Part shown: one piece after another, positions 34,410 through 53,187 of the stretch
Layout of the letters: every line of letters starts with the position of its first letter
Numbering within the stretch: position 1 is the first letter of the stretch
DNA from: an uncultured Flavobacteriaceae bacterium
Lineage (GTDB): Bacteria > Bacteroidota > Bacteroidia > Flavobacteriales > Flavobacteriaceae
Direction: 5' to 3'
Length of the DNA stretch: 64,000 nt
Assembly: GCA_943789455.1 (NCBI GenBank)
Contig: CALSUE010000003.1
Coordinates: 290,923 to 354,922, forward strand
The notes under the pieces: generated by a model
Told to the model about the DNA's origin: nothing
What the model saw: only the letters and a program-made list of their open reading frames with translations
Databases searched by the model: none
Made by a program: the position numbers and the translations under genes

Positions 34410-35579
34410 ATGAAACCCCTACAACACCCTATCATATTTCTTGAAGAAAAAATTCACAGAAAAAATAATCAGCTCTTAATCAAGTTTGATTATGATGAGA
34501 CGTTAATTTCACTTATCCGATCTATTCAAGGAACATCTTGGAGTAAATCTTTAAAGGCTTGGTATATTTTAAATACTAAGGATAACCTAAACATTATTTT
34601 AAAGCTATTTGAAAAAATTACAACAGTAGACTTCTCTAAAATTGGGAAAAGTGCACCCTTTAAAAGAAATTTAACTGAAGAACAGAAGCAATTGTTAAAT
34701 CAATTTTATTTGTTTTTAAAAGGAAAAAGATATAGCCAAAGTACGATACAAACCTATACTTTTTTTATTGCAGACTTTATAAATTTTCACACAAAAACAC
34801 CCTTAGCGGAACTTACAAACAGAGCCGTAGAACTTTTTATTGAAACCGTTTTTATGGAGCGCAACTATTCTGTTAGTTCGCAAAGACAGTTTATAAGCGC
34901 CTTAAAGATTTTTACGGTGTTTTGTCCGCAAACAAAGATTCATAATTTGTCTCTAGAACGGCCTAAAAAATCTAGAATGCTTCCTAGTGTATTGTCTCAA
35001 GAAGAGGTGTTACGTATTATTCAATTAACTAAAAACTTAAAGCACAGAGCCATTATTGTATTGCTTTATTCTTCCGGTCTTCGTATTGGAGAGGTTACAA
35101 ATTTATTATTAAAAAACATTGATATTCTAAGAAGGCAGATTAAAGTTGAAAAAGGGAAAGGCAGAAAAGATAGATTTGTTGTTTTAGCAACTAGTTATTT
35201 ACCTCTTTTACAAAATTACTTAACAACTTTTAAACCAGCTCTTTATTTTATAGAAGGCCCAACAGGTAAAAAGTACTCTGAGAGTAGTATTAGAAAGTTT
35301 TTATTTAAGAGTGTACAAAAAGCCGGTATTTCAAAAAAAGTAACCCCTCATACCTTGAGACATAGTTATGCTACACATTTATTAGAAAATGGCGTTGGTT
35401 TGAGACATATACAGGAGTTATTAGGACACGCTAAACCAGAAACTACTATGATTTACACACATGTTGCAAAGAAAGATTTACTAGATATTCAGAGCCCGTT
35501 AGACACTATTTTATTAGATTTGAATAAAAACGATAAACGAGAACAAAAGTTCCTGTTATCCGGAAACATAGACCTATAA
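34410..35579 (+). CDS. Integron-type tyrosine recombinase without the IntI insertion
   Basis: A 389-residue recombinase at the head of the cassette array. An extra N-terminal domain (1-85, with SWSKSLKAWYI) precedes a SAM-like core-binding domain (about 90-175) and the catalytic domain. Catalytic residues are R225, K250, H314, R317, H340 and Y349. The R-K (25), H-R (3), R-H (23) and H-Y (9) spacings equal those of IntI1. The segment TTMIYTHV...SPLD near the C terminus is also IntI-like. K250 to H314 is 64 residues against 106 in IntI1 and 72 in XerD, so the IntI-specific insertion is absent. It reads in the same direction as the cassettes, the inverse of most integrons. It may be the cassette integrase; a plain Xer-like recombinase beside the array is the alternative. 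Confidence 0.85.
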   Translation: MKPLQHPIIFLEEKIHRKNNQLLIKFDYDETLISLIRSIQGTSWSKSLKAWYILNTKDNLNIILKLFEKITTVDFSKIGKSAPFKRNLTEEQKQLLNQFYLFLKGKRYSQSTIQTYTFFIADFINFHTKTPLAELTNRAVELFIETVFMERNYSVSSQRQFISALKIFTVFCPQTKIHNLSLERPKKSRMLPSVLSQEEVLRIIQLTKNLKHRAIIVLLYSSGLRIGEVTNLLLKNIDILRRQIKVEKGKGRKDRFVVLATSYLPLLQNYLTTFKPALYFIEGPTGKKYSESSIRKFLFKSVQKAGISKKVTPHTLRHSYATHLLENGVGLRHIQELLGHAKPETTMIYTHVAKKDLLDIQSPLDTILLDLNKNDKREQKFLLSGNIDL

Positions 35580-35640
35580 ACAGGAGGTTTATTCTCCATA
35601 TAACGAGTTAGCTACAATTGTCAGAAAGTAATACATATAA
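35580..35640 (+). other. Candidate attI and first core site
   Basis: The first GTT core, GTTAGC at 35607-35612, lies 28 bases after the recombinase stop. The cassette start GTTAGCTACA matches the reverse complement of the bases ending at the left core of the first attC (TGTAGCTAAC at 35965-35974). The DNA between the stop codon and this core is therefore the best candidate for attI. A TTGACA-N17-TAGATA stretch at 35716-35744 looks like a sigma70 promoter, but Bacteroidota use other signals. Confidence 0.55.
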
Positions 35641-35771
35641 GCAATATACTAAAGATGCTAAATAATGTTTGTAACTTTTAATCCTATAAGAGCACTAATA
35701 ATATTGGTGTCTGTATTGACATTATATCTTAATGAGAATAGATACCAAAAAAATTAAACAATAAGACCTTT

Positions 35772-35948
35772 ATGAAAAAAAATAACAAATTAGGTATTGG
35801 AATTGCGATCGGAATTGGAATTGGAACCGCTGTTGGAGTTGCAACTGGTAATCTAGGATTATGGCTCAGTGTAGGAATAGCTATTGGAGCCGGAATTGGA
35901 ACCACACTTAATAAAACAAATAAATCGGAAGAAAGCGATAAATCCTAA
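35772..35948 (+). CDS. Cassette 1: small glycine-zipper membrane protein
   Basis: A 58-residue protein: basic N terminus (MKKNNKLG), a long segment of repeated GIGIG, GVATG and GAGIG (about 8-43), then a charged tail (NKSEESDKS-like). The Gly spacing suggests packed membrane helices. Its only cassette neighbours are the attI region and attC1. No family recognised. It is too short for most gene callers but has a clean ATG, and its stop lies 20 bases before the attC. Confidence 0.6.
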   Translation: MKKNNKLGIGIAIGIGIGTAVGVATGNLGLWLSVGIAIGAGIGTTLNKTNKSEESDKS

Positions 35949-35968
35949 TATCTTAAAAAGTAACTGTA

Positions 35969-36161
35969 GCTAACAACGTATATAGCTCATAGCTGTTTAG
36001 TTGCTAAATCGAAGTAAAGCATACTTGGAAAGTCGCCAAATTTTAAAATTTGACGATTTCCAATAATAAAGATAAATAGTAAAATTTAAAAATCTGGCTT
36101 TTGCTCAACCGAAAGGAAACAGTTAATTTGCACGCTACGAGCCATATACAAAACCGTTAGC
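35969..36161 (+). repeat. attC-like site 1 (193 bp, longest)
   Basis: Left core GCTAAC, spacer AAC, stem GTATAT; right stem ATATAC, then AAAACC and core GTTAGC. The centre holds an extra hairpin of TGGAAAGTCGCCAAATTTT with its near-complement. Longer than the other sites by about 60 bp. Confidence 0.85.
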
Positions 36162-36253
36162 ATTTATTGAAAAATAACAGAGTCTTATTCTAAAGTTCTA
36201 ATTACTGTAACAAGTTTTATTCTTTCTCGTCCTATTGTTTTAAATCAAAAAAT

Positions 36254-36847
36254 ATGAAAAATCAAATTATAATAATACTTGCATTAGTAATACTTAGCGC
36301 CTGTAAGGACACACCTAAATCCAGTACAACCTACCAACCTATTCAATCCGATTATCAAGTTGGTGAGAAATGGGTCTGGAAATTTAAAGGTGTAACAACG
36401 GAAGGAGAAGTACGCTCAGATGGAAAAGATACCAGAGAAATAGTCAATACTGATGGAGTTTTAGGTATGACAATTGGAAAGGACACCATTCCCGTTACTG
36501 ACATTGTTAAACCAGAAAAAAGCGAAACACCAAAGTACAACTGGCCTCTGGAAGTGGGCAAAAAGTGGAAATATGAAAACAATTGGACAAGTCAAGATGG
36601 AACAACGGGAAACCAAAGTCAAGATGCTGAAATACTATCATACCAAGAAGAAACAGTAAAAGCTGGAACATTTATGGCATATACGATTGAATATACAGGT
36701 AAAACTACAAATTCTAGAGGTTATAGCGCTGACGAAAAGGAAGTTTGGTTGTATGCGCCTGCTATAAAAAACTTCATAAAACTCACTCAGAATCAAGGTG
36801 ACTTTTTATACGTAGAGGAATTAATCGAATATTCAAAACCAGAATAA
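36254..36847 (+). CDS. Cassette 2: lipoprotein
   Basis: A 197-residue protein with a lipobox (LVILSAC, Cys 16), then YQVGEKWVWKFKG, a repeat of the pattern VGKKWKYENNW and many aromatic residues, as in beta-sheet ligand-binding lipoproteins. Family not recognised. It is the only gene of its cassette (36157-37009), between attC1 and attC2, on the + strand. Expression probably depends on upstream promoters, since I see none inside. Confidence 0.65.
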   Translation: MKNQIIIILALVILSACKDTPKSSTTYQPIQSDYQVGEKWVWKFKGVTTEGEVRSDGKDTREIVNTDGVLGMTIGKDTIPVTDIVKPEKSETPKYNWPLEVGKKWKYENNWTSQDGTTGNQSQDAEILSYQEETVKAGTFMAYTIEYTGKTTNSRGYSADEKEVWLYAPAIKNFIKLTQNQGDFLYVEELIEYSKPE

Positions 36848-36884
36848 ATCGAAATATTTTATAAAAACTGAAAGAAAAACAAAT

Positions 36885-37014
36885 GCTAACACCGTGTATA
36901 ATTCATTGCTGAGATGGTTAATCGAATTAAACTTCCTACATTTTAACTAAATTTAGTTAATAGGAAAAAACAGAAAACCAAAAACCGCAACGCAATCATA
37001 CACAAACCGTTGCC
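36885..37014 (+). repeat. attC-like site 2 (130 bp)
   Basis: GCTAAC on the left and GTTGCC on the right. The right half belongs to the next cassette, whose own left core is GGCAAC, so the pair is restored in the circle. Stems GTGTAT/ATACAC flank a unique centre with TTAACTAAATTTAGTTAA. Confidence 0.85.
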
Positions 37015-37021
37015 ATTAATT

Positions 37022-37678
37022 ATGAAAAAAAAACGAAATTCATTGAAATATAAATGTATAATTTTTGATTGCGATGGAATTCTTGTCGATAGTGAAGAAA
37101 TTTCAAATTCTGTTCTCATTAAAATGGCTAATGAAGTTGGAATAGAAATTAAAATGGAATATGCTCTTGAAAATTTTGCTGGAAAATCCCTAAAAAATTG
37201 TTTTGCGCATATTGAAAAACGAATAAAAAAACCACTTCCGAACACATTCGAAAAAGAATATAGAAACCGAACTTTTTCTGCATTTAAAACGGACTTAAAA
37301 CCAATTAAAGGAATACACGACTTACTTAATCAAATTTCAATACCTTTTTGTGTTGCATCAAGTGGACCAATAGAAAAAATAAGACTAAACTTGACAACAA
37401 CTAATTTGATTGAAAAGTTTGAAAACAGAATATTTAGTTCCTATGAAATTGGAAGTTGGAAACCGAATCCTGAAATATTCGAATATGCTGCTAAAAAAAT
37501 GGGGTTTGAACCAAACGAATGTGCTGTTATCGAAGATAGTTTAGCAGGAGTTAAAGCAGGAATAAAAGGCGGATTTGACGTTTTTGGACTTGCTAATCAC
37601 AAAAACAAAACTGAATTAAAAAAAGAAGGAGCAAACGTATTTTTGGGAATGAATGAATTATACGAATTACTGAATTAA
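37022..37678 (+). CDS. Cassette 3: HAD family phosphatase
   Basis: A 218-residue HAD-IA hydrolase, with nucleophile and acid D-C-D in IIFDCDGILVDSEE, motif II CVASSGP, K in KPNPEIFEYAAKKMG and motif IV VIEDSLAGVKAG. Beta-phosphoglucomutase- or phosphoglycolate-phosphatase-like; substrate unknown. I set the start at ATG 37022, because the frame upstream reads into the attC core. Only gene in its cassette. Confidence 0.85.
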   Translation: MKKKRNSLKYKCIIFDCDGILVDSEEISNSVLIKMANEVGIEIKMEYALENFAGKSLKNCFAHIEKRIKKPLPNTFEKEYRNRTFSAFKTDLKPIKGIHDLLNQISIPFCVASSGPIEKIRLNLTTTNLIEKFENRIFSSYEIGSWKPNPEIFEYAAKKMGFEPNECAVIEDSLAGVKAGIKGGFDVFGLANHKNKTELKKEGANVFLGMNELYELLN

Positions 37679-37689
37679 AAATAACTAAT

Positions 37690-37820
37690 GGCAACACCGT
37701 ATATAATTTATTGCTTGGTTCTTGCCTACTTACGAAAATCCTCGCGGATTTTCTATTCGGTTTTTATTTGCTAAATTTAGTGCTTAAACCACGCAACAAA
37801 CCATATACAAACACGTTAGC
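37690..37820 (+). repeat. attC-like site 3 (131 bp)
   Basis: GGCAAC, spacer ACC, GTATATAATTTATTGC, then GCAACAAACCATATAC, AAACAC and GTTAGC. The internal hairpin is GAAAATCC-TCGC-GGATTTTC (37734-37753). The arms pair on the bottom strand through T-G pairs where the top strand has A/C mismatches. Confidence 0.88.
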
Positions 37821-37852
37821 TCTAATTAACCATAACCAACAAAAAGACAGAA

Positions 37853-39182
37853 ATGATTCAAAAAAAACTAACCAAACTTGTCGGACTGAAAAAAACTGAT
37901 TTTGACTTATTTGTAGAAAGTGGTCAAATCAAATTACAACAAGCGAAATTAATTCCAACTTTGAAAACTGGAGACGAAATGGCATTAACGTCAATTTTCT
38001 TGTCAACAGTTAGGTTAGTTAAAGAATATAGAGACGGAATTTTTAAAAGCATTAAATTAAGTAGAGCTGGTAAAGCATATTATTATACAGAGACTTGCTT
38101 TCCTGATATTAGTTCATCTAGAATTGATGGATTAATTATTGTTGTAATAAAAGGAATAATTGCAGATGCTGTATTCTTCGAAATGAAAAATAAAAACAAT
38201 GGAATTGACCAAAAACAAGTTGAGGATTATCTTTCTATTTCAAAAAGTTTAAAAGTTAATAAATTAGTAACTGTTTCAAACGAATTCGTTGCAGACTCAA
38301 CACATTCACCTGTAAAAGCAAAAGTTCCAAGAAACATTTCATTATACCATTTTTCGTGGACGTATTTAATAACAAAAGGTAGATTGCTACTTTTTAAGAA
38401 TGATTTAAGAATACAAGATGACGACCAAGTAGAGATAATGTCCGAAGCTTTGCATTATTTTGAAAGTTCAGTATCGGGAATTTCTGGGTTCATACAAATG
38501 AAAGCAGGTTGGAAAGAACTTGCCGAATGTATTAGAGCACAAAAAGCACTAAAACAATCCGACCCACTTTATTGAGGAAGCTGTTTTAAGCTGGTACGAG
38601 GAAGAAAAAGATATGGCTTTACTTTTAAGTAGAAAACTTGGAGTTTTAGTAAAATCCTCTTCAAAAAATAAAGACAGTTTAAAAAACGACATCAAGAAAG
38701 TTATAAAAGACAACTGTATCAATGGAGAATTGATTATTAGAAATGCTGCTTCAGACATTAAACTTATGGCTGAATTTGAAAGGAGAATGGTATCAATGTC
38801 AGTTAAGCTAACACCGCCATTAGACAGAGGAAACAAAGCAAAAATTACTTGGATTGGAAAACAACTAGAAAATTGTAAAAAGAAAAATGACACTTTATTT
38901 CCAAAATTGGAAAAGGAATTAATAATCGAAGCTGACATTAAATATGCTAAAGCCAATATAAAAGTCAAACTATCGGAATTGGATGAACTGATTGAATTAA
39001 CTAAAGACAAGGAAATTCAAGGTTTTAAAATTACTTTGAATAGAGGATTTGGAGCAGGATTTTCAAGTGTGAAAAAATTTATAGTTCTGATTGACAATAT
39101 GGTTTTAGAATATTATGAGGGAATTGTTCAATATGTAAGTACTTGGACCAGACCAACGCCGAAAATTGTACAAACAGAATAA
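37853..39182 (+). pseudogene. Cassette 4: nuclease-like gene split by a frameshift
   Basis: Two consecutive reading frames, 37853-38575 (240 aa) and 38613-39182 (189 aa), join in a +1 related frame near 38550-38572. The second frame opens upstream as HFIEEAVLSWYEEEKDM, so one gene of about 440 codons was probably broken by a single-base change. The first part contains a PD-(D/E)XK-like pattern, RIDGLI followed by FFEMKNK and QKQVEDY, as in Mrr-like nucleases. A defence role is possible but not shown. A sequencing error or a programmed frameshift cannot be excluded. Confidence 0.65.
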
Positions 39183-39191
39183 ATAACTAGA

Positions 39192-39323
39192 GCTAACAAT
39201 GGCTATAATTCATTGTGGTATAAGAACAAAAAAGAATAAATTTAACAAATCAATCGGCTAATTTCTAAGCGGAATAATCCTGAGGATGATTCCACAACGA
39301 AATCATAGCCGAGACCGTTAGCC
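39192..39323 (+). repeat. attC-like site 4 (132 bp)
   Basis: GCTAAC, AAT, GGCTAT on the left; ATAGCC, GAGACC, GTTAGC on the right. A central hairpin near AATAATCC/GGATGATT replaces the usual GAAAATCC stem. A second stem type than sites 3 and 6. Confidence 0.85.
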
Positions 39324-39453
39324 ACAAGCTGAACAAAAACTCGAACTTACATTAAAAATTCCAACTGAAGAGCCAACGCTTATTCAAGCACATTCAATTT
39401 TGCTCATTCTTCACAAAATCAAAAAAGCTTTCATCTCCTCACTTTTGACAAAT

Positions 39454-39516
39454 GCTAACTTTAGTCTGTGGTATTAACTGAATACTATAGTTAGCTTTGT
39501 GTATACTAAAGTTAGC
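39454..39516 (+). promoter_or_regulatory. Controller promoter and operators of the R-M cassette
   Basis: TAGCTTTG (39492-39499) fits TAnnTTTG. Around it are GCTAACTTTAG (39454-39464), CTATAGTTAGC (39485-39495) and CTAAAGTTAGC (39506-39516). The first and last are a perfect 11-base inverted repeat. The last lies in GTATACTAAAGTTAGC, one base from the element upstream of the methyltransferase. Confidence 0.75.
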
Positions 39517-39517
39517 A

Positions 39518-39733
39518 ATGAAAGCAAATTCAGATATATTAATTCAGTTTGGAAAACGTGTAAGGCAATTAAGAAAAGACAAAGGATTTTCTCAAGAAGA
39601 ATTGGCTCATAGAGCTGATTTGCATAGAACCTATATTGGCATGATTGAAAGAGCTGAAAAAAATATTACTCTTATAAATATTGAAAAAATTGCTAACTCA
39701 TTAGATGTAAAAATTAATGAACTATTTGAATAA
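39518..39733 (+). CDS. Cassette 5: controller (C) protein, XRE-type
   Basis: A 71-residue helix-turn-helix protein: QFGKRVRQLRKDKGFSQEEL, then LHRTYIGMIERAEKNITL. Size and sequence are those of C proteins of type II restriction-modification systems, which time methyltransferase and nuclease expression. I chose ATG 39518 because it directly follows the operator and promoter; the upstream extension lies in the promoter. Operators with the same sequence stand before the methyltransferase genes, supporting the role. Confidence 0.85.
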   Translation: MKANSDILIQFGKRVRQLRKDKGFSQEELAHRADLHRTYIGMIERAEKNITLINIEKIANSLDVKINELFE

Positions 39734-39745
39734 GTAGGTAACTCC

Positions 39746-40897
39746 ATGGCACTAAAAAAAACAGAATTACTAAATATCTTCAAGGTAATCCCTTTTGATT
39801 TATTAGAATTAAAAGGAATTGGTACAGTTATTAAAATGGATGCATATTCTGCTTTTGATTTTAGTGCTATTACAGGCGCTAATTATCTAGTAGAACCAAT
39901 CGGTGTAACTATGAAAGGCAGAAACGAAACGTTTATACATCGAGCTGTATTTCAAGAAGGTTCATATATATATAGTCCTGGTTTATTCGAAAGAAATATT
40001 AATAGGAGTTTGTCAGAAGGCAATTCTGCAGATAAATTGTTAAGACTCTATCCTGATGTCTTTAGTGGTGATAAATACATTTTAATAAATGAAATCTCAA
40101 CAGGATCAAATAGTAATATTGATATAAATGTATATAATGAAATTGAAAAACATGGTTTTAATCCAAAGAACTTCATTCTATATAAATTATTTGAGTCAGG
40201 TCAAAGTCAAGAATCAATTTATGAGTATTTCACTTCTCTTTTTTATATAAAAAAAGGGTACATTGTTGAAAATCAAACACCTTGGTTTCAACAAAACTAT
40301 TTATACAAAGGGGAAAGGCTAAATGGTGGAATTCCTGATTTTTCAGCTTTTAAAACTGATATAATAAACCCTTTGAGAGAATTTAGTATCCTGTCGTCAA
40401 ATGAAGGAATTTTAATTAATAAAATTCCTGTTATTAAGAATTTTAGAACCATTAAAAAGAAAACCAATTTTACAGTTAGTAAAGTGAATTATGATTTAAT
40501 TATTGGAGAGGTTAAATCCGATAACTCTTCGATAGATCAAGCCATAAGACAAATGAACAAATATTCTAATGTCGAATTAGCAAATAAGATATACTCAATC
40601 ATTCCAAATTGTAAAAATAATGGAAGTGAAAATTTTGGTGAGTTTTATTTAGATCAAAATATTCTAAAAATTAACGAAAGTAAAAAATCTTTGACGGTAA
40701 ACTCTGTAAGTCAACAAATTGATAGAGACTGGATTAATGTCAATGTAAAATTGAATTTATTGGGTAATGCAAATTTCAATCTTTTAATGCAATACCTTAT
40801 TAACAAATATGGTTTAACTAAAGACGAAATCAAATCATTTCATTTGATTGATTTTGCGATGAATATTTCTATACCAGATATAATTAAAATAATATAA
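39746..40897 (+). CDS. Cassette 5: putative restriction endonuclease subunit 1
   Basis: A 383-residue protein with no clear homology by eye, but a PD-(D/E)XK-like site: GGIP197D198FSAF and LIIGE255VK257S, followed by Q-rich helix SSIDQAIRQMNKY. It starts 12 bases after the C gene, overlaps the next start by one base, and lies in a cassette with two methyltransferases, all of which suggest it is (part of) the restriction enzyme. Specificity unknown. Confidence 0.6.
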   Translation: MALKKTELLNIFKVIPFDLLELKGIGTVIKMDAYSAFDFSAITGANYLVEPIGVTMKGRNETFIHRAVFQEGSYIYSPGLFERNINRSLSEGNSADKLLRLYPDVFSGDKYILINEISTGSNSNIDINVYNEIEKHGFNPKNFILYKLFESGQSQESIYEYFTSLFYIKKGYIVENQTPWFQQNYLYKGERLNGGIPDFSAFKTDIINPLREFSILSSNEGILINKIPVIKNFRTIKKKTNFTVSKVNYDLIIGEVKSDNSSIDQAIRQMNKYSNVELANKIYSIIPNCKNNGSENFGEFYLDQNILKINESKKSLTVNSVSQQIDRDWINVNVKLNLLGNANFNLLMQYLINKYGLTKDEIKSFHLIDFAMNISIPDIIKII

Positions 40898-44730: not shown

Positions 44731-44739
44731 TTAAATAAT

Positions 44740-44889
44740 TTTAATATACGAAACACAATTCCATACACATTTGCAATTCGCACAATGCCATTACTCAAGC
44801 CAAAAATTGCAAAAGAGTATTGCCTAGTAACATTCAAATTAAACTTATCGGAATAATGGAACTGAAAGCAGAATTGAATAAAGCCAGTG
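44740..44889 (+). other. Non-coding tail of the R-M cassette
   Basis: About 150 bases between the methyltransferase promoter and attC5. A short + strand frame ends LIGIMELKAELNKASG at a stop overlapping the attC core (44890s). It could be the tail of an older cassette gene into which the R-M block was inserted; this is weak. Confidence 0.3.
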
Positions 44890-45020
44890 GCTAACAACGT
44901 ATATAAAAAATAGCTATTTAAAGTCTAAAGCAAATATATATTTTATAAATTTAACATCAAGCATAAACAGAAAAGTTCGTACTATAAAATCCGCTACTTT
45001 TCATATACAAACACGTTGTA
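44890..45020 (+). repeat. attC-like site 5 (131 bp)
   Basis: GCTAAC, AAC, GTATAT; right TCATATAC, AAACAC, GTTGTA. The R-M cassette starts GTTAGCCAC (39318) and ends GTGGCTAAC, consistent with one excisable unit of about 5.6 kb. Centre is unlike the GAAAATCC type. Confidence 0.85.
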
Positions 45021-45034
45021 AAACATTAACGAAA

Positions 45035-45424: not shown

Positions 45425-45432
45425 AAACATTT

Positions 45433-45562
45433 TACAACACAGTATATAATTTATTGCTAACTCTAGCCTACTTAAGAAAATCCTCGCGGATTTTCTATTT
45501 GGTTTGTATTTGCTAGATTAGGTGCTTAAAACACGCAACAAACCATATACAAACACGTTAGC
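45433..45562 (+). repeat. attC-like site 6 (130 bp)
   Basis: TACAAC, ACA, GTATATAATTTATTGC and GCAACAAACCATATAC, AAACAC, GTTAGC. Internal hairpin GAAAATCC-TCGC-GGATTTTC identical to site 3. Confidence 0.88.
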
Positions 45563-45578
45563 ACTTATACGAGAAAAA

Positions 45579-46154
45579 ATGAAACGATTAACAAAATTCA
45601 TAGAAAAGAATATTTCAGGAAAAAAGGTTTTAGGACTTTTTGTCTTGACCAATCTTGTTTATACCTTTATGCTGACTGTTACAATTCCAAAAACAATGGA
45701 ATTCTCTAACGGAATGAAATTATTGGATATGTTGCCCACAGGATATGATTTGAATTATGTAAGTGAATTATTCACTTCGCTTGGAGAAAATGGACGTTTG
45801 ACATATCTAACCAACCAAATACCTGTTGATATGATTTACCCACTACTATTCGGACTTTCTTACTGTTTTCTTTTGGGATATTTCTTAAAAAAATTGAACA
45901 AATTAAATTCCCCATATATTTATCTCTGCATAATACCGATAATTGCTGGAATTGCAGATTATTTGGAAAATATCGGAATTATCACAATGCTTAAAAACTA
46001 TCCCGAATTGAAAGAGACTGCGGTTTATACAACTAATATATTTTCAGTTATAAAAAGCATTTCAACAAGTATATTTTTTATTGCATTAATAATAATCTTA
46101 TTAACACTTGGAATTAAAGTATTAAACAGAAAAACAAGTGCTAACACCGTATAA
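45579..46154 (+). CDS. Cassette 7: integral membrane protein
   Basis: A 191-residue protein with about four membrane helices. No family recognised. The coding frame runs 15 bases into attC7: the last residues are SANTV, from GCTAACACCGTA, and the stop TAA is part of the attC stem. I set the start at ATG 45579; the longer frame begins inside the previous attC. Confidence 0.6.
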   Translation: MKRLTKFIEKNISGKKVLGLFVLTNLVYTFMLTVTIPKTMEFSNGMKLLDMLPTGYDLNYVSELFTSLGENGRLTYLTNQIPVDMIYPLLFGLSYCFLLGYFLKKLNKLNSPYIYLCIIPIIAGIADYLENIGIITMLKNYPELKETAVYTTNIFSVIKSISTSIFFIALIIILLTLGIKVLNRKTSANTV

Positions 46155-46267
46155 AATTAATTGCTTGTTTTAGCCTATTTATGAAAGTCCTCGCGGACTT
46201 TCTATCTGTGATTTATTTGCTAAATTAGTGCTTAAAACACGCAACTAATCTTATACAAAACGTTGGC
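46140..46267 (+). repeat. attC-like site 7 (128 bp)
   Basis: GCTAAC, ACC, GTATAA; right TTATAC, AAAAC, GTTGGC. Internal hairpin GAAAGTCC-TCGC-GGACTTTC (46183-46202). Compared with sites 3 and 6 the A-T pair is G-C, a compensatory change that supports a folded structure. Confidence 0.9.
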
Positions 46268-46274
46268 AAACATT

Positions 46275-46838
46275 ATGAGAAACCTACTAAATATCATCGG
46301 AGCAATTTTAATGGTTGGATGTACCACACTCAATAGTATAACTAACGAAGGAGGAAGTTTATACACAATAGAGAACTCTGACGATACAATAACTAAAGTA
46401 AAGAGTGACACAACTGGCAGTCTAAACAATAAGGATTATGAAAACTTAAAAAATTATTTGACCGACATTACTCAACAAAAAATAAACTTTGACAAAAAAG
46501 TTATCATCAATTTCATAGACAATGATCCAAAAACATATAGAAAGAACTATCAAGTTCCTTGGGATATATTTTACGGAAATATGGAAAATGATTTAACTAA
46601 ATTAGGAGAATGTAATCACTTTTGGATAATAAACCAAAGAGTTAAAGACTTGGACTATTATCACGGTGATAAAATTAATTGGGTTGTTGATAAAAATAAT
46701 TTAATCAGACAATCATTTTTCAAATATGATGGCCTAAATGGAGGGTTTGTAATAATAAAACCCAATGGCGATTATTTCCTGAAAATTGGAGAATATCGAA
46801 AATCTGATGTATTAAATACGCATAATGAATTTAAATAA
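46275..46838 (+). CDS. Cassette 8: lipoprotein
   Basis: A 187-residue protein with a lipobox (AILMVGC, Cys 16), then a charged, aromatic-rich body including NHFWIINQRVKDLDYYHGD. Not recognised. Start set at ATG 46275, since the frame open from 46263 lies in the attC core. Confidence 0.65.
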   Translation: MRNLLNIIGAILMVGCTTLNSITNEGGSLYTIENSDDTITKVKSDTTGSLNNKDYENLKNYLTDITQQKINFDKKVIINFIDNDPKTYRKNYQVPWDIFYGNMENDLTKLGECNHFWIINQRVKDLDYYHGDKINWVVDKNNLIRQSFFKYDGLNGGFVIIKPNGDYFLKIGEYRKSDVLNTHNEFK

Positions 46839-46845
46839 AACGTTT

Positions 46846-46976
46846 GCCAACAATGTATAACCGCAATTACGGCGGATTCGACTACGTCCGAATCCACTCG
46901 GAATTACTAACGTCAGTGCTTAACCGAAAAACAGTAACTTTAAACCCGTAACTGACGGTTATACGAGACCGTTGGC
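46846..46976 (+). repeat. attC-like site 8 (131 bp)
   Basis: GCCAAC, AAT, then a perfect 9-base stem GTATAACCG/CGGTTATAC, spacer AGAGACC, GTTGGC. A second perfect stem GGATTCG/CGAATCC sits inside. A different stem sequence on the same architecture. Confidence 0.88.
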
Positions 46977-47003
46977 AACAATATCTGAACGAAAAACAAA
47001 GAG

Positions 47004-47420
47004 ATGAAAAAAGTATACTTTAATAATATTAGTAGTTGGAAAAATGGGATATTGATAATCCCTTCAATTATCTGTTTTTTGATTGGAACATTCGAATTAT
47101 TCTCTGAACCAAATACTGTATGGAACAAAAGAATATCTATTCTCGGCACAATTTTGATGATGCTTTTCTTCGCAAGAATGTCTTATGGAAAATACTATGT
47201 TGGTTGGAATAAAGTTGGAATTACTATAAGAATAAAATCCTTTTTGGGGAAATCTTTCAATTTTAAAGATGTTAAGTCAACTGATTTACAAAATGGAATT
47301 CTTAGTGTTGTAAAAAAAAATGGAAAGAAAATAGAATTAGATTTGAGCGAAATTGAAGAAAATGACGTTATAAGAATAACTGAAATTCTGTCAGAAAATA
47401 CTATTGCCAACAATGTATAA
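47004..47420 (+). CDS. Cassette 9: two-TM protein with PH-like tail
   Basis: A 138-residue protein: two membrane helices (about 12-30 and 45-60), then YYVGWNKVGITIRIKSFLGKSFNF, like cassette 6. Its reading frame also ends inside the attC (last residues TIANNV, stop in GTATAA). Function unknown. Confidence 0.58.
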   Translation: MKKVYFNNISSWKNGILIIPSIICFLIGTFELFSEPNTVWNKRISILGTILMMLFFARMSYGKYYVGWNKVGITIRIKSFLGKSFNFKDVKSTDLQNGILSVVKKNGKKIELDLSEIEENDVIRITEILSENTIANNV

Positions 47421-47535
47421 AAATAATAGCAGTTTAATCGCTAAAACGAAACAAAGTAAATATAAAAAAGGTCTGTGTATAACCGAAAAGTTAGTGTGTG
47501 TAAATCCGCTACTATTCTTATACTAGACCGTTGTA
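47406..47535 (+). repeat. attC-like site 9 (130 bp)
   Basis: GCCAAC, AAT, GTATAA and TTATAC, TAGACC, GTTGTA. The left half is partly coding for the cassette 9 protein. Confidence 0.83.
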
Positions 47536-47592
47536 AGCAATTAAACCAAACCAGATAAATAGAGTCTAAGCTGAAATATAAATTAATAAAAT

Positions 47593-48645
47593 ATGAGGAG
47601 AAAAATCCTATTTTCAGCAATAACAATTTTATCTTTTGTTACCAGTGTAAAATCACAAGATACTCTTGTCTCAGCTTTTTTTGGACTTGATAATGGACTA
47701 CCAGGTTTATTATGTAATCAACCAGGAAGTCTGCTAGATGGTATGCCTGTTAATTTTAAATTCCCATTAGATGCATCCACCTTGTCAGAATCTGATTTTG
47801 AAGTTGTAGATAACCTTGGAAATATTCACATACCAATGTGTGCTGTTTTAGCACCGGCAAATGAAAACGGTGAAAATCGAACAGTGCTATTGATAGGTGA
47901 ATTTGGAACTGCTATTACTAATCCACCTGTTGAAGTTAGAGTTGTAGGGGATTTATTTACAAGTGATACTTTTTCAGGAGAGTCCGCCTGTTCAGAAATC
48001 ATAAACCTAAACGGAAGCATTACCACGAATGTTATTCCGCTTGCTGATGGACCAAGTTTATTCTTTGCCCAAAGAATTGATGGCGATCTGAATGAATGTA
48101 ATTCAGGAACACAAACGATTCAAGTTGCTTGGAATGGTGGCATTACACCGTATATAAGTGGTGATACCGAATCTGACTTATTTCAGTACTATGTTGGCTA
48201 TTCTGAAAGTTCTGGAGTTCTAATACCGCATGTACCAATTTCGATAGCAGATATAAATGACAACGACAACTTTCACCAACTTTGTTTTTCTACAAGTGAT
48301 GAAATTGTTAAAATTTCAATGATGGCTAACACGGTCGAAGACCCAAACCAAGACCCAAATTTATACAGTGAAATTGATGTTAGTTCCTGCACTAGTTTGA
48401 CGAGTATTGAAGAGAACCTTATCGAAAAAGGGTATAAAATTTACCCGAATCCGTTTTCGGATGAAATTTTTGTTCAGAATCTTCTTGGAGATGAATACTT
48501 CATCATTTATGACACTTTAGGGCGAAATATTATTGAAGGAAAATGTTCAGGAACTATAAAAATACCAGAAACAAAATCAGGAATATGCTATTTGACCATT
48601 CTAAACAATAACAATCAGACAACCTACAAGTTAATTAAAAGATAA
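47593..48645 (+). CDS. Cassette 10: secreted T9SS cargo protein
   Basis: A 350-residue protein with a signal peptide (1-21, ending VKSQ) and a C-terminal type A sorting domain of the type IX secretion system (KGYKIYPNPFSDEIFV, then YFIIYDTLGR, TYKLIKR). The middle part is not recognised. The protein is probably exported and anchored to the surface. Cargo with such a tail in a mobile cassette ties the array to gliding/secretion biology of Bacteroidota. Confidence 0.85.
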   Translation: MRRKILFSAITILSFVTSVKSQDTLVSAFFGLDNGLPGLLCNQPGSLLDGMPVNFKFPLDASTLSESDFEVVDNLGNIHIPMCAVLAPANENGENRTVLLIGEFGTAITNPPVEVRVVGDLFTSDTFSGESACSEIINLNGSITTNVIPLADGPSLFFAQRIDGDLNECNSGTQTIQVAWNGGITPYISGDTESDLFQYYVGYSESSGVLIPHVPISIADINDNDNFHQLCFSTSDEIVKISMMANTVEDPNQDPNLYSEIDVSSCTSLTSIEENLIEKGYKIYPNPFSDEIFVQNLLGDEYFIIYDTLGRNIIEGKCSGTIKIPETKSGICYLTILNNNNQTTYKLIKR

Positions 48646-48650
48646 CTGCT

Positions 48651-48781
48651 TACAACAACGTGTATATTCAATTGCTAGCTTCTAGACTACTTTGGAAAAC
48701 CCTAGCGGATTTTGCATTCAGTAATTATTTGCTATTTTAGAGCTTAGACCACGCAACGAGATCATACACCAGACCGTTGTA
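48651..48781 (+). repeat. attC-like site 10 (131 bp)
   Basis: TACAAC, AAC, GTGTAT and ATACAC, CAGACC, GTTGTA. Internal hairpin GGAAAACCC-TAGC-GGATTTTGC, slightly changed from the GAAAATCC type. Confidence 0.85.
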
Positions 48782-48831
48782 CGCAAGCAAACCATGATCG
48801 AATTCAGAAAATGATTATTTTAATAGAAAAA

Positions 48832-49308
48832 ATGAAAAATTCAATTGTCACCCTATTTATCTTAGCCCCTATTTACTTATTCGCTCAAAGTTCAGATTAT
48901 AGCGTTTCCTCCTATCTTACTGAGGGCACAAAGGCGCCAAATACCCATTACATTGGGGAAGCCTGGTTGAATGCCATAATTCATGATGATGCTGAATTGG
49001 GATATAATATTACAAAAGCGACTTTTAAAGCCAACTCAACTTTGGATTGGCATAAACATAGTTCTGCACAAGTTTTAATAATAGTGGATGGAGAAGCATA
49101 TTATCAGGAAAGGGGAATAGAGCCTGTGATTCTGAAAACAGGAGACATAATTAAATGTGAAAAGGATATTGAACATTGGCATTCATCCACCAAGTCTAGT
49201 GATGTTACATATTTAGCTTTATATGGTGGTGGACAACCAACAACTTGGACTGAAGTAGTGACTCAGGAATACTATGACGAAGTTGCCAAAAAGTTGAAAA
49301 GCAACTGA
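48832..49308 (+). CDS. Cassette 11: secreted cupin-domain protein
   Basis: A 158-residue protein with a signal peptide (ending YLFAQ) and a cupin beta-barrel: DWHKHSSAQVLIIVDGEAYYQERG and CEKDIEHWHSST, with metal-binding His, His, Glu/His patterns. Start set at ATG 48832; the open frame upstream begins within attC10. Enzymatic or carbohydrate-binding role unknown. Confidence 0.8.
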   Translation: MKNSIVTLFILAPIYLFAQSSDYSVSSYLTEGTKAPNTHYIGEAWLNAIIHDDAELGYNITKATFKANSTLDWHKHSSAQVLIIVDGEAYYQERGIEPVILKTGDIIKCEKDIEHWHSSTKSSDVTYLALYGGGQPTTWTEVVTQEYYDEVAKKLKSN

Positions 49309-49348
49309 TTTGGGCAAAAAAAAATTAACTGGAAATAAAAAGCCAGCG

Positions 49349-49420
49349 TACAACAATGGCTATAAGTCATTGCTAGTTGAAAGTTTAAAAACAAAAAGAA
49401 TTGCTAATTTTAGACAAAAC
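49349..49420 (+). repeat. attC-like site 11, right half missing
   Basis: Left core TACAAC with AAT and GGCTAT as in site 4, and the following CATTGCTAG, but no ATAGCC-GAGACC-GTT on the right. The cassette 12 gene follows 37 bases on. A deletion has fused two cassettes here. Confidence 0.6.
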
Positions 49421-49457
49421 TGATAAATAAGTTGAATAACACTAAAAGCTATTTACA

Positions 49458-49838
49458 ATGACAAAGGATATTAATGAAATTCAAGCTAAACTAATTGATA
49501 TTCTTAAGGAGCAAATAGACGTACTTAAGATATCTGCAGAAACGGAAAATAAATTCGAAGTTTCGGGAACTATTGAAGCAATGCAAGGTAAAAAGAAAGT
49601 AGATGGTATTTATTTTGCTTCAGTTGTGCCAAAGCCAAAGGATGTGCGATTCTACTTTTTCCCAACGTATACGCATAAAGAGCAAATAGGCGAATTACCC
49701 GAGAATCTAAAAAAGGCACTAAAAGGTAAATCTTGCTTTCATGTAAAGTACATGGACGATGAATTTGAGGATAACATTAAAGAGTTAGTCGAAACCGCTG
49801 TTAAATTATACCAAGCTGACGGGCTCCTTGCCAAATAA
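49458..49838 (+). CDS. Cassette 12: small soluble protein
   Basis: A 126-residue protein without membrane helices or a signal peptide. It has PKPKDVRFYFFPTYTHKEQIG and LKKALKGKSCFHVKYMDDE. Possibly a DUF1801-like fold, but I do not recognise it. It is part of a fused unit with the cupin gene because the preceding attC has lost half. Confidence 0.55.
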   Translation: MTKDINEIQAKLIDILKEQIDVLKISAETENKFEVSGTIEAMQGKKKVDGIYFASVVPKPKDVRFYFFPTYTHKEQIGELPENLKKALKGKSCFHVKYMDDEFEDNIKELVETAVKLYQADGLLAK

Positions 49839-49843
49839 CTATC

Positions 49844-49895
49844 GCTAACAATATGTAAAAAGCATTGAAACGACTTTTTACATTTGACCGTTGTA
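49844..49895 (+). repeat. attC-like site 12, 52 bp short form
   Basis: GCTAAC, AAT, ATGTAAAAAG, 11-base loop, CTTTTTACAT, TTGACC, GTTGTA. Same core and spacer logic as the long sites, with a perfect 10-base stem but no internal hairpin. The left core is preceded by the usual C at -11. Confidence 0.75.
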
Positions 49896-50317: not shown

Positions 50318-50449
50318 TACAACACCGTGTATAATTAATTGCTAAGTTCTACTCTACTTACGAAAATCCTCGCGGATTTTCTTTGTCAGTAATTATTTAT
50401 TAACTTTCTTGCTTAACCAACGCAACTAACCTTGTACAAACACGTTGTG
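50318..50449 (+). repeat. attC-like site 13 (132 bp)
   Basis: TACAAC, ACC, GTGTATAATTAATTGC, internal GAAAATCC-TCGC-GGATTTTC, then GCAACTAACCTTGTAC, AAACAC, GTTGTG. Cassette 13 start and end share only six complementary bases, the least of the set. Confidence 0.82.
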
Positions 50450-50471
50450 TGCAATCAAAAAAACGGAGTAA

Positions 50472-52145
50472 ATGAAACAAAATTTAACATCAATACTCAT
50501 TCTATGTATTATCCAACTGAATTTGGGCTGTTCTCAACTGGAAAAGTCTAAAACTGAACAAAAGGAAGCAACAAAAATTGAACTAAAAGACAATTGGTAC
50601 TACCTTAATGGAGAGAGATTTTTTATTAAAGCAATAGGTTACGAAATAGCTGCACGTCCTGGACAACATCCTTATGAAGATGAAAGGAAAGATCATTTAG
50701 AATTAATGAAATTTGATCTTGAAAACATTAAAAAAAGTGGTTATAATACAATAAGAACTTGGAGTCAATTTTCTGAAACACAATTAAAATTGGTACAAGA
50801 ATCTGGTCTAAAACTTATTATGGGTTTAGAAGTTAATCCAGAAGAAGATTATAGTGATCCTAAATTTATAAATCATTGTAAAACGCAGCTTGAAAACATC
50901 TTAAAATATGCACCAAAATATGATTGCATAATTACGTATTTGGTTATTAACGAACCTCAAACTGATCACATTCATAAAGTTTCAGCCAAGGCGTTTAAAG
51001 ACCTTATGAAAATGATGGTAGATATGATTCATGAAAATCATCCAAATATTCCAGTAACCCTTTCTGCAAATGCAATGATTAGTGATTGGATGGACCAGAG
51101 TATGTATGATGTATACGCTTACAATTGTTATGGCTACAATGAAGGCCAAACAGCAACAATGGGATTTAGAGATTATATAAAAGGTTTAAATGAATTAAAC
51201 GGATTAGATAAACCATTTATAATTACTGAATTTGGACATTCAGTATCACCAAAAGGAGGCTTTGGTAGTTTTGGCTCACGAACTTTAAAAGAACAAAGTG
51301 AAGGACTTGTTTCTAATTACCGAGATTTAATGGATGCTGGAGCTGTAGGAATGTGCCCATTTTATTATGCAGATGGTTGGTGGAAAGGTGGAGAAAAAAG
51401 TATACATAATAAAGAGCAACCAGAAGAATGGTTTGGATTTTGGGGTTATAAAGATATAAACGACAAATATGGTTCTCCACGTCCAGTTTGGTTTGCAATG
51501 CAAGATTATATGAAAGGACTTATTATAAGCCCAAAAAACAAAACAGTACACACTAATACAACTATACCTTTAGAGTTTTATAATGATGCGAGTATTAAAA
51601 AAGTGGTTGTGAAAAATCGTGATAAAGTAATCTATTCTAAAAACATAACAAAAGAAGGTTATTTTGCAGACCAATTAACAATAAATCCAGTAGGATTAGA
51701 AGCTATGGAACTTGCTTTTGAGTTTTTTGATAGCAAAGATAATAGTGTTAAAAACGAATCTATTATAATTCTTGCTTCCAAAACAGCTATAGACTTGCCT
51801 AAATTAACTATAGAAGTCACACCTGAAAAAGATTTAAACAACGTAAAAATTGGAAGCATTAAAACAACAATAGAAACCAATGAAAATTTTAAATTAATTA
51901 GCGATTTAATAGTTAGTTATAATACACACCTTGGTTGGGACGTAGGTCCTCAGGCATCAGTTTCTGTTAAAGACCAAATGGATAAAAAAGTAATTACTTC
52001 TGAAAATTTCTTTAACATTCCTGATAATTGCTGGGTTGTAAATGCATCAGCAGGAATATCAGTTAGGTATGGTAAATTCACCTTTAAAATTCATGACCAA
52101 AAAATAATTTACAGAGGTGATTGGGCTAAAGGAATCAGTCGCTAG
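50472..52145 (+). CDS. Cassette 14: GH-A clan glycosidase lipoprotein
   Basis: A 557-residue lipoprotein (lipobox LNLGC, Cys 20). A TIM-barrel glycosidase pattern: acid/base E161 (YLVINEPQ) and nucleophile E253 (FIITEFGHS). Beta-sandwich-like C-terminal regions follow. This fits clan GH-A (GH2/GH5/GH30-type); the substrate cannot be told. It is probably a surface or periplasmic polysaccharide enzyme. Confidence 0.82.
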   Translation: MKQNLTSILILCIIQLNLGCSQLEKSKTEQKEATKIELKDNWYYLNGERFFIKAIGYEIAARPGQHPYEDERKDHLELMKFDLENIKKSGYNTIRTWSQFSETQLKLVQESGLKLIMGLEVNPEEDYSDPKFINHCKTQLENILKYAPKYDCIITYLVINEPQTDHIHKVSAKAFKDLMKMMVDMIHENHPNIPVTLSANAMISDWMDQSMYDVYAYNCYGYNEGQTATMGFRDYIKGLNELNGLDKPFIITEFGHSVSPKGGFGSFGSRTLKEQSEGLVSNYRDLMDAGAVGMCPFYYADGWWKGGEKSIHNKEQPEEWFGFWGYKDINDKYGSPRPVWFAMQDYMKGLIISPKNKTVHTNTTIPLEFYNDASIKKVVVKNRDKVIYSKNITKEGYFADQLTINPVGLEAMELAFEFFDSKDNSVKNESIIILASKTAIDLPKLTIEVTPEKDLNNVKIGSIKTTIETNENFKLISDLIVSYNTHLGWDVGPQASVSVKDQMDKKVITSENFFNIPDNCWVVNASAGISVRYGKFTFKIHDQKIIYRGDWAKGISR

Positions 52146-52155
52146 TAAGACAGCA

Positions 52156-52285
52156 CACAACAACGTGTATAGTCAATTGCTTGGTTATCGCCTACTTGGA
52201 AATTTCTTCGGAATTTCCTCTGGTTCGTTTTTGTTTACTAACTTAGTCCTAGCCAACGCAACAAATCATACACAAACCCGTTGGC
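52156..52285 (+). repeat. attC-like site 14 (130 bp)
   Basis: CACAAC, AAC, GTGTAT and ATACAC, AAACCC, GTTGGC. Inner stem GGAAATTTC-TTC-GGAATTTCC: the length and position are kept but the sequence has changed. Confidence 0.85.
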
Positions 52286-52296
52286 AGTAATATGAT

Positions 52297-52503
52297 CTAA
52301 ACCCAATCGGAATCTTCTAAAGTAAAAATTTCGCTTATTTCAACTTCAAAAATTTGAGCTAATCTTAAAGACAAAACTGTTGACGGAACATATTTCCCTA
52401 ATTCCATTGCATTAATTGTTTGTCTGCTAACTTTTGCCAATTTAGCTAATTCAGCTTGCGTAATATTCTTTTTTGCTCTCTCAACTTTAATACTATTCTT
52501 CAT
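52297..52503 (-). CDS. Cassette 15: XRE-type regulator
   Basis: A 68-residue helix-turn-helix protein (AKKNITQAELAKLAKVSRQTINAMELGKYVPS). It overlaps the membrane-protein gene by 11 bases and is transcribed against the cassette direction. Such small regulators next to membrane proteins are common in Bacteroidota and Firmicutes. Confidence 0.8.
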   Translation of the reverse strand: MKNSIKVERAKKNITQAELAKLAKVSRQTINAMELGKYVPSTVLSLRLAQIFEVEISEIFTLEDSDWV

Positions 52504-52969
52504 AATGAGCAGATTTTTTAAGTTTAGAAATTTGCCAGTTAAACCGAATAATGAAAAACAGTAAAATTGTAAACATATTAAATATCATAACCCATAAGAA
52601 AGACAAATCGAATATGAATAGAAAAGATATTAAAAGAATTGCGTAATTTAAATAAACAGCCCAAACTAAAGATTCTAACCGAATTTTTGAAATATATTCA
52701 TCTTCTGACTTTTCTTTAGAAAAAGCAACTAATAATGAACTCAATATTATTAGAGTACCTAAAATTTCATTTAAAACATTGTTGTTAACAATTCCTATAA
52801 AATGCTTATCACCAAAAAACTCATCAATAAAAATAGCAGGGACATTAAAATCCAAATAATTAGGCTCGAACTCTAAAATAAGAGTTATCAAACCAATGAT
52901 TGCGGATGGAATAAGTATTAACCAACCGATTTTCTTGTACTTGTTAGGAAATAGATAATTTAATTTCAT
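52493..52969 (-). CDS. Cassette 15: membrane protein coupled to the XRE regulator
   Basis: A 158-residue protein with four membrane helices. Start set at ATG 52967-52969 behind a strong promoter; the open frame begins earlier. No family name known to me. Read before the regulator, so both come from one promoter. Confidence 0.65.
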   Translation of the reverse strand: MKLNYLFPNKYKKIGWLILIPSAIIGLITLILEFEPNYLDFNVPAIFIDEFFGDKHFIGIVNNNVLNEILGTLIILSSLLVAFSKEKSEDEYISKIRLESLVWAVYLNYAILLISFLFIFDLSFLWVMIFNMFTILLFFIIRFNWQISKLKKSAHYEE

Positions 52970-52991
52970 AATAATCAGATTTAATTTTAAA

Positions 52992-53023
52992 CAAATGTAA
53001 AACAAATAAAACTATTAGACAAA
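52992..53023 (-). promoter_or_regulatory. Autonomous promoter of cassette 15
   Basis: On the minus strand TTTG (rc 53020-53023), 20 bases, TACATTTG (rc 52992-52999), 22 bases before the start codon. A full Bacteroidota-type promoter, unlike most cassettes here. Confidence 0.7.
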
Positions 53024-53055
53024 TAAACTTTACATTTAGTAAAACAAATACTACT

Positions 53056-53187
53056 GCCAACACCGTATATAATTTATTGCTTAGGTCTGTGTTACTCGGA
53101 AAATCCTACGGATTTCCCTAAGGTTCGATTTCCTTTTGCTAATTTAGTTGCGCGAGACTCGCAACTAACCATACACCAACCGTTAGG
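53056..53187 (+). repeat. attC-like site 15 (132 bp), last of the array
   Basis: GCCAAC, ACC, GTATATAATTTATTGC and GCAACTAACCATACAC, CAACC, GTTAGG. Right core differs (GTTAGG), and the next cassette start lacks the usual A at +11. Confidence 0.82.

What the first reader, a model, noticed from the sequence alone, without database searches (positions are those of the whole stretch)
34410..53187. An integron-like cassette array in a Flavobacteriaceae chromosome
A tyrosine recombinase is followed by about 16 short cassettes, mostly one to two genes each, all but one set on the + strand, separated by 15 sites of conserved architecture (14 complete). The site layout (core, unpaired spacer, second stem, variable centre, mirrored) is that of attC in mobile and Vibrio integrons, with a length near 130 bp like the V. 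cholerae VCR. Functions are accessory and mixed (defence, lipoproteins, surface enzymes), as in superintegrons. I know of few well-described integrons in Bacteroidota.
Basis: partly seen in the sequence, partly recalled or inferred. Interest (0 to 1): 0.95.

Follow-up and report, generated by a model that had tools for sequence, protein, structure and literature searches.

The report
Integron lacking the IntI-specific helix
This Flavobacteriaceae chromosome carries a row of about fifteen gene cassettes, single ones of which sit in other genera between different neighbours, beside a recombinase that lacks the insertion held to be essential for integrons; it likely shuffles genes by a second kind of integron that seems not to have been studied.

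Summary
Int (34410-35579) is followed by an attI-like site and 15 sites (14 complete). The two ends of each cassette are complementary: 80 of 84 core positions match across cassettes, 36 of 84 within sites; no permutation of 100,000 reaches this. In 40 related loci plus the window, 211 of 288 sites fit the preceding site's core fully, 9 of 288 their own. In other family genomes 91 of 102 matches to the array lie in one cassette body, none in two. So the cassettes are mobile. Yet this is not a standard integron. Int lacks the IntI insertion (25-30 residues in it and 52 relatives, 67 in 30 IntI); IntI was found in 0 of 249 Flavobacteriaceae genomes; a 100/100 branch separates the two. The sites mostly lack the extrahelical bases of attC and carry A.C mismatches on the top strand, G.T wobbles on the bottom; IntI-linked sites of the same phylum show the opposite pattern. 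I read it as an I2-less integron lineage of Bacteroidota. Recombination, the enzyme and the strand are inferred, not assayed.

The parts
34410..35579 (+). int: tyrosine recombinase, 389 aa; N-terminal extension of about 90 residues, SAM_4 domain, catalytic domain (R225, K250, H314, R317, H340, Y349 by motif); no IntI-specific insertion
   Evidence: catalytic assignment from recalled family motifs
35547..35622 (+). attI-like site: ...TTATCCGG...CATATAACGA^GTTAGCTACA, GTT at 35607, 27 nt after the int stop
   Evidence: complements the 5' core of site 1 over 10 nt; position and motif in relatives
35969..36161 (+). site 1 (long form, 187 nt between cores); ends cassette 1 (35607-36156)
36885..37014 (+). 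site 2; ends cassette 2 (36156-37009; ORF 36254-36847, lipoprotein-like by eye)
37690..37820 (+). site 3; ends cassette 3 (37009-37815; HAD-type hydrolase)
39192..39322 (+). site 4; ends cassette 4 (37815-39317; two genes without a Pfam match)
44890..45020 (+). site 5; ends cassette 5 (39317-45015): small helix-turn-helix ORF 39497-39733 (by eye, not searched), two genes on + without a Pfam match, two DNA methyltransferase genes on - (41963-44680)
45433..45562 (+). site 6; ends cassette 6 (45015-45557)
46140..46267 (+). site 7; ends cassette 7 (45557-46262), the cassette compared in 8 other loci
46846..46976 (+). site 8; ends cassette 8 (46262-46971)
47406..47535 (+). site 9; ends cassette 9 (46971-47530)
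48651..48781 (+). site 10; ends cassette 10 (47530-48776; protein with Por_Secre_tail)
49349..49436 (+). site 11, broken: 5' half only
49844..49895 (+). site 12, short form (46 nt between cores); ends the double unit 48776-49890 (cupin gene 48811-49308)
50318..50449 (+). site 13; its 5' core fits the preceding 3' core in only 6 of the first 9 positions
52156..52285 (+). site 14; ends the cassette 50444-52280 (gene 50472-52145 with a Glyco_hydro_2_C match)
53056..53187 (+). site 15; ends the cassette 52280-53182 (minus-strand ORFs); last site found in the window; no 5' core partner for its 3' core downstream

Best explanation
This is an array of gene cassettes bounded by attC-like sites that the neighbouring tyrosine recombinase, which lacks the IntI-specific I2 insertion, likely excises and inserts at the GTT of each site, predicted to act on the folded bottom strand. 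Steps. (1) Each site has an outer core (..YAAC ... GTTR..), an uneven unpaired spacer (mostly 3 and 6 nt), a paired inner stem and a variable centre: shown. (2) A cassette runs from one GTT to the next; its two ends are complementary, so a free circle would restore one symmetrical site: the complementarity is shown, the circle inferred. (3) Int acts at attI just behind its own stop codon, where new cassettes would enter: the attI sequence is shown, its use inferred. (4) The bottom strand would be chosen because two A.C mismatches on the top strand are G.T wobbles on the bottom, in place of the extrahelical bases that I2 reads in true integrons: the marks are shown, their role inferred. (5) Cassettes have passed between genera and been duplicated: shown by comparison.
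For: Cassette ends complementary: 80/84 against 36/84; 211/288 against 9/288 in 32 sources, at bases outside the site matrix. Arm pairing: 13 pairs, 9 with changes on both sides; 338 two-sided cells against 82 in shuffles. Between the int stop and the first site, the exact 9-mer partner of the first core occurs in 27 of 33 loci, null 0.4%, 24 of these within 200 nt of the stop; counting 8-mers there are 26 near ones, 25 of them just after ATATAA or ATATAC. Int is on the strand of the sites in 36 of 36 sources that have sites. Identical bodies within arrays, and a 91% identical cassette in hosts whose Ints are 37.7% identical. Of 102 matches of the window array in other family genomes 91 lie in one cassette body, 11 in a site only, 0 in two bodies. 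IntI in 0 of 249 Flavobacteriaceae genomes, while the same profile rang in 46 of 148 genomes of a phylum sample. Strand marks and missing bulges with an IntI control.
Against: Nothing was assayed; no excised circle and no pair of sister strains was seen. That sites follow int and do not precede it is partly by construction: I fetched about 500 nt before int and up to 19 kb behind it; only in the window was the upstream side read far. The covariation alignment was fitted to the structure. In 4 of 13 folded sites (4, 6, 14, 15) the minimum-energy structure does not pair the two arms, and site 10 folds no better than shuffles (z 0.21). 16 of 147 Flavobacteriaceae sites have a 5'-arm bulge and 52 a 3'-arm bulge by my alignment; 83 have none. 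5 of 41 sources have no site: L050 and L070 end soon after int, L057's int has two stops, L063 and L067 are unexplained. In L035 0 of 3 sites fit their predecessor, in L066 2 of 7. In the window, site 13 fits badly and the site 11/12 join is broken. Two further tyrosine recombinases of the genome could act in trans.
Confidence: 0.83

Rival explanations
1. An ordinary integron whose integrase is merely a divergent IntI.
For: TIGR02249 is the best NCBIfam hit and IntI4 the third-best solved structure by sequence; core, spacer and attI layout agree.
Against: 213 bits against a cut-off of 265; insertion absent in the window protein and the 52 relatives checked, present in the 30 IntI checked; IntI split off by a 100/100 branch; sites differ from IntI-linked sites of the same phylum.
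Confidence: 0.05
2. The same cassette system, but the recombinase acts on double-stranded sites like Xer or phage integrases, without folded single strands.
For: Xer-type recombinases without I2 act on double strands, and an integron could in theory work so (PMC4792948, section 10, part 1 read). The closest solved structure by sequence is XerA.
Against: The two inner arms, about 70 nt or more apart, covary, which a single double-stranded core would not need; the arm duplex is more stable on the bottom strand in 280 of 289 unique sites.
Confidence: 0.15
3. Intergenic repeats inherited vertically, with no recombination.
For: Sites are homologous repeats and lie between genes.
Against: Cores fit the preceding site and not the own other half; single cassettes occur in other genera without their neighbours.
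Confidence: 0.01
4. The cassettes are real but are moved by another enzyme (host XerC/D-like or phage integrase); Int only happens to sit there.
For: The genome has two further tyrosine recombinases; a lytic Polaribacter phage carries such sites and has no annotated integrase.
Against: Int is on the strand of the sites in 36 of 36 sources with sites, with attI close behind it in most, also where Int is only 38-41% identical (L068, L069, L071, L072).
Confidence: 0.06

Closest known systems
Integrons with IntI (mobile class 1, Vibrio superintegron)
   Same: Tyrosine recombinase beside attI; cassettes of mostly one gene; GTT core shared between neighbours; uneven unpaired spacer (by one measure mostly 2/6 nt in IntI-linked sites, 3/6 in Flavobacteriaceae, 1/5 in the phylum-wide set)
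   Different: No I2 insertion; sites mostly without extrahelical bases, with A.C/G.T marks; int on the strand of the cassettes (the opposite is the usual order in IntI integrons, recalled); N-terminal extension of about 90 residues
XerA and XerC-like recombinases (PDB 5hxy, 4a8e)
   Same: Best sequence match and best Foldseek match, though with weak superposition (TM 0.39 by query); no long insertion between patches II and III in the two other recombinases of this genome
   Different: Cassette arrays are not known for XerA (recalled). Of 14 distant relatives without the N-terminal extension that I fetched, 3 have cassette chains of 3 or more, and L152 and L154 have weak site hits
CTXphi and other Xer-exploiting phages (PMC4792948, section 10, part 1 read)
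   Same: A Y-recombinase without I2 using a folded phage site whose stem has no extrahelical bases
   Different: No own integrase and no cassettes; not compared here
CALIN of lytic Polaribacter phage P12002L (PMC9892861, section 13 and passages read)
   Same: 7 matrix hits of this site type in the phage, 4 in 20 shuffles of it; the paper reports IntI1 recombining P12002L_attC2 from the bottom strand, with no recombinants from the top strand
   Different: No integrase annotated; whether attC2 is one of my seven hits could not be checked

Membership tests
Integron (IntI type) | Integrase with the IntI-specific additional domain (I2) near patch III (definition: passages of PMC9668308 and PMC7790495) | tested here: not met
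   25 residues in the window, 25-30 in 52 relatives, 67 in 30 IntI
Integron (IntI type) | attI next to the integrase gene | tested here: met
   (by sequence)
[quoted passage not shown]
Integron (IntI type) | Extrahelical bases on the 5' arm (passages of PMC2727003) | tested here: not met
   5'-arm bulge in 16 of 147 Flavobacteriaceae sites and 2 of 25 phylum-wide ones against 34 of 35 IntI-linked sites
Integron (IntI type) | Cassette boundary inside the 3' core; both ends of a cassette complementary | tested here: met
Integron (IntI type) | Recombination of the single-stranded bottom strand | not testable with these tools
   only base-pairing energies: bottom better in 280 of 289
Integron (IntI type) | SOS (LexA) control of the integrase | not tested
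   -
Xer/dif chromosome resolution | Acts at one dif site, no cassettes (definition recalled) | tested here: not met
   array and attI-like site

The most novel reading that the evidence does not exclude
Bacteroidota hold a second kind of integron that does without I2 and without extrahelical bases: a Xer-like recombinase reads strand polarity from paired A.C/G.T marks. It is either the I2-less stage from which IntI arose or an independent invention of cassette shuffling. Either way the view that I2 and cassette recombination at folded single strands occur only together would fall.
Probability: 0.6. Interest if true: 0.97.

Novelty: new variant of a known kind. Interest (0 to 1): 0.93.

Why it matters
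Published work holds that gaining I2 made single-strand cassette recombination possible, that I2 was found in no other protein, and that intermediates are lacking (PMC7790495, passages read); it calls the joint origin of I2 and attC a chicken-egg paradox (PMC4792948, section 10, part 1 read). A large natural lineage with cassettes and hairpin-type sites but no I2 and few extrahelical bases makes that question testable at the bench. Tools that recognise IntI by its specific domain (so described in a passage of PMC9668308) would miss it; I ran none of them. It could be a main route of gene sharing in the phylum: 242 of 397 Flavobacteriaceae genomes have a homologue of Int, and 87 of 296 of a phylum sample that includes family members, at E <= 1e-45 (not all are array-linked). 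IntegronFinder 2.0 reported one complete integron in Bacteroidetes proper, Salinibacter (PMC9024848, passage read); in the GTDB phylum sample here, which is wider, 46 of 148 genomes have IntI.

Tried and rejected
Rfam (gathering scores) and tRNA scans of the window: nothing. Pfam on the N-terminal 90 residues: one hit, E 0.14; its function stays unknown. AlphaFold model: mean pLDDT 75.9, pTM 0.47, parts of the C-terminus below 50; used only for the fold match, not to argue about I2. R1 on phage P12002L: one hit, E 2.9; the matrix scan finds 7. An ad-hoc scan of that phage listed 18 pairs, some plainly chance, and is not used. The first three-set strand comparison is discarded because orientation was arbitrary (core complementarity is strand-symmetric) and showed no strand difference for that reason; one search repeats it with orientation set by cassette ORFs. 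In one search shuffled sequences gave chains of up to 3, 4 and 3 in the three sets, so a chain of 4 in the Flavobacteriaceae set can be chance once in about 40 loci. Trees: the family forms one group in 59% of bootstraps, so I make no claim on whether IntI nests within it; the label 'solo' is unsure for L152, L154 and L160 (weak site hits or short contig). Some phylum-wide genomes have both IntI and the Int homologue (for example G402 and G412), so their arrays could be served by either. Matrix hits in IntI loci: 5 in 308,219 bases, not followed up. In one search only 1-2 candidates per genome were scored, so its counts are lower bounds.

Literature: 10 searches. No listed title or abstract start reports integrons without I2 or such arrays in Flavobacteriaceae; two searches listed 20 of 33 and 12 of 28 papers. 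Preprints and most subscription journals are not held, so it may be in print.
Full report
What is there. The window lies in a 2.23-Mb draft Flavobacteriaceae genome; the closest Int relatives that carry a name are Polaribacter, 83% identical. Int (34410-35579, +, 389 aa) has an extension of about 90 residues without a family match, a SAM_4 domain and a Phage_integrase domain. Behind it come 15 sites to 53187, all on +. Cassette genes are mixed: a HAD-type hydrolase, a lipoprotein-like ORF (by eye), a possible restriction-modification locus with two DNA methyltransferase genes, a protein with a Por_Secre_tail, a cupin, a protein with a Glyco_hydro_2_C match, many without a match.

The decisive test. 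If the units are integron cassettes, the 3' core of one site and the 5' core of the next belong to one cassette and should be complementary, more than the two halves of one site. In the window 80 of 84 positions (4-9 of the core, 14 comparisons) match across the cassette and 36 of 84 within the site; permutations average 36.5 and reach 67 at most in 100,000. I fetched 40 loci of the family, picked for room on the contig. In these plus the window, 330 sites lie on the majority strand and 1 on the other; of 288 sites with a predecessor within 4 kb, in 32 sources, 211 are fully complementary to it and 9 to themselves; 1518 of 1728 positions match against a within-locus permutation mean of 737 (maximum 817 in 1000 runs). 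The tested bases lie outside the matrix that finds the sites. Fits are poor in some sources: 0 of 3 in L035, 2 of 7 in L066, 6 of 11 in L042 at the looser measure; missed sites are a likely reason. The first cassette's core has its partner behind int, which gives attI: exact 9-mer in 27 of 33 loci, null 0.4%, 24 of them within 200 nt of the stop; with 8-mers 26 near ones, 25 after ATATAA or ATATAC.

Mobility. Among 286 called cassettes (median 862 nt; longest ORF on + in 248, on - in 19, none of 50 aa in 19), there are identical copies within arrays (a 606-bp body four times in L068, an 816-bp body twice in L064) and shared ones between hosts. L042 and L072 share a cassette at 91% DNA identity although their Ints are 37.7% identical; the match ends within 1 nt of the GTT on the right and 13 nt before the GTT of L072 on the left, while in L042 it starts inside the called cassette, where a site was probably missed. 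The window array matched 95 other family genomes at E <= 1e-60 (identities 68-96%). Of the 102 matches 91 fall in one cassette body, 11 in a site only, none in two bodies; by my count from that table 87 of the 95 genomes have a body match. The cassette at 45557-46262 was compared in 8 loci (identity 90.6-96.2% over the body). With 1.2 kb of window on either side as query, the matches of this cassette begin at 45436-45575 and end at 46154-46273: never in a neighbouring cassette body; left ends lie within 1 nt of the GTT in 3 loci, 5-18 nt inside in 2 and in site 6 in 3; right ends lie near the 3' core of site 7 in 4 and near its 5' core in 4. The other pieces are site sequences.

Site structure and strand. 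The consensus of 12 window sites has 13 inner pairs, 9 with two-sided changes. In 149 distinct sites of an alignment fitted to the structure 98.7% of cells pair, with 338 two-sided changes against 82 in shuffles, and sliding the partner by 1-3 columns destroys this. In 289 unique sites the top strand has 718 A.C against 50 G.T oppositions; positions 12 and 17 (counted from the A of the core AAC as 0) carry A.C in 234 of 288 and 279 of 287; the arm duplex is more stable on the bottom strand in 280 and on the top in 9. Control with one code for three sets, sites found by cassette-end complementarity and arm pairing without the matrix, orientation by cassette ORFs: IntI-linked arrays of the phylum (7 of 20 loci, 35 sites) have a 5'-arm bulge in 34, A.C 8 to G.T 9, bottom better in 11 and top in 21; Flavobacteriaceae (24 of 40 loci, 147 sites) a 5'-arm bulge in 16, a 3'-arm bulge in 52, none in 83, A.C 344 to G.T 13, bottom better in 146, top in 1; non-IntI arrays from elsewhere in the phylum (7 of 19 loci, 25 sites) a 5'-arm bulge in 2, A.C 41 to G.T 14, bottom 23, top 2, position 17 kept in 21 of 25. 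Single-site folds of the bottom strand are less clean: 9 of 13 pair the two arms in the minimum-energy structure at least in part, sites 4, 6, 14 and 15 do not.

The recombinase. It scores 213 bits on the integron-integrase model, cut-off 265, and the alignment to IntI4 jumps 59 residues of IntI4 against 16 here. The compared stretch is 25 residues in the window, 25-30 in 52 relatives, 67 in all 30 IntI. In a core tree of 56 rows IntI (15) is split at 100/100 from 41 non-IntI recombinases, array-linked and others mixed. True IntI is found in 46 of 148 genomes of the phylum sample and in 0 of 249 of the family (its 14 control genomes do not ring either, so one search is the positive control).

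Reach. 242 of 397 family genomes hold a homologue at E <= 1e-50. Cassette chains of 3 or more were also found in 11 of 34 loci of more distant homologues, shuffled maximum 1. In an order-level sample, family members included, 32 of 99 genomes have site hits at E <= 1e-4. A lytic Polaribacter phage holds 7 matrix hits; a published assay with one predicted site of that phage gave recombination by IntI1 from the bottom strand and none from the top (PMC9892861, section 13 read), but whether it is one of these seven is unknown.

Mechanism and its limits. The cassette logic and mobility are shown by comparison. That Int is the enzyme rests on position, strand and attI; that sites follow int is partly how the loci were fetched. 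That folded bottom strands are used rests on covariation between distant arms and on the pairing asymmetry. That A.C/G.T marks replace extrahelical bases is inference from their joint presence or absence with I2: I2 docks the extrahelical bases (PMC7790495, passage), and IntI1 cannot excise between two sites that both lack them (PMC2727003, passage). How the second strand exchange is avoided without I2 is open.

Verdict. It works like an integron; it is not a member of the IntI family, since two defining features were tested and not met. I file it as a new variant: an I2-less integron lineage of Bacteroidota.

Noticed in passing
39317-45015: A 5.7-kb cassette holds a small helix-turn-helix ORF (39497-39733, by eye), two genes without a match and two DNA methyltransferase genes on the other strand; GCTAACTATAGTATAC near 44705 and GTATACTAAAGTTAGC near 39500 look like one operator used twice, as in regulated restriction-modification (by eye).
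   Followed up: no
L150 (phage P12002L), 31118-40762 and about 14624: Seven sites of this type lie in a lytic phage, six on + among methyltransferase and Mom-like genes that run on -, against the direction usual for cassettes, and one on - near 14624.
   Followed up: partly
34410-34680: The N-terminal 90 residues of Int (two strands, helix, two strands, helix, strand in the model) have no family match, yet many homologues in and outside the family align over them.
   Followed up: partly
L036-L072 arrays: Sites come mainly in two sizes, about 124 and about 190 nt; some arrays use mainly the long one (L040, L064, L065).
   Followed up: no
L177, L178, L181, L182: The cassette shared with window 45557-46262 matches only up to about the 5' core of site 7 there; in L177 a different site subtype follows, as if cassette body and site had been exchanged separately.
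   Followed up: no
35547-35610: attI regions hold an inverted repeat around the int stop codon (CCTGTTA...TAAACAGG here; AACATTG...CAATGTT in L049; by eye), overlapping the coding end of int in the window.
   Followed up: no
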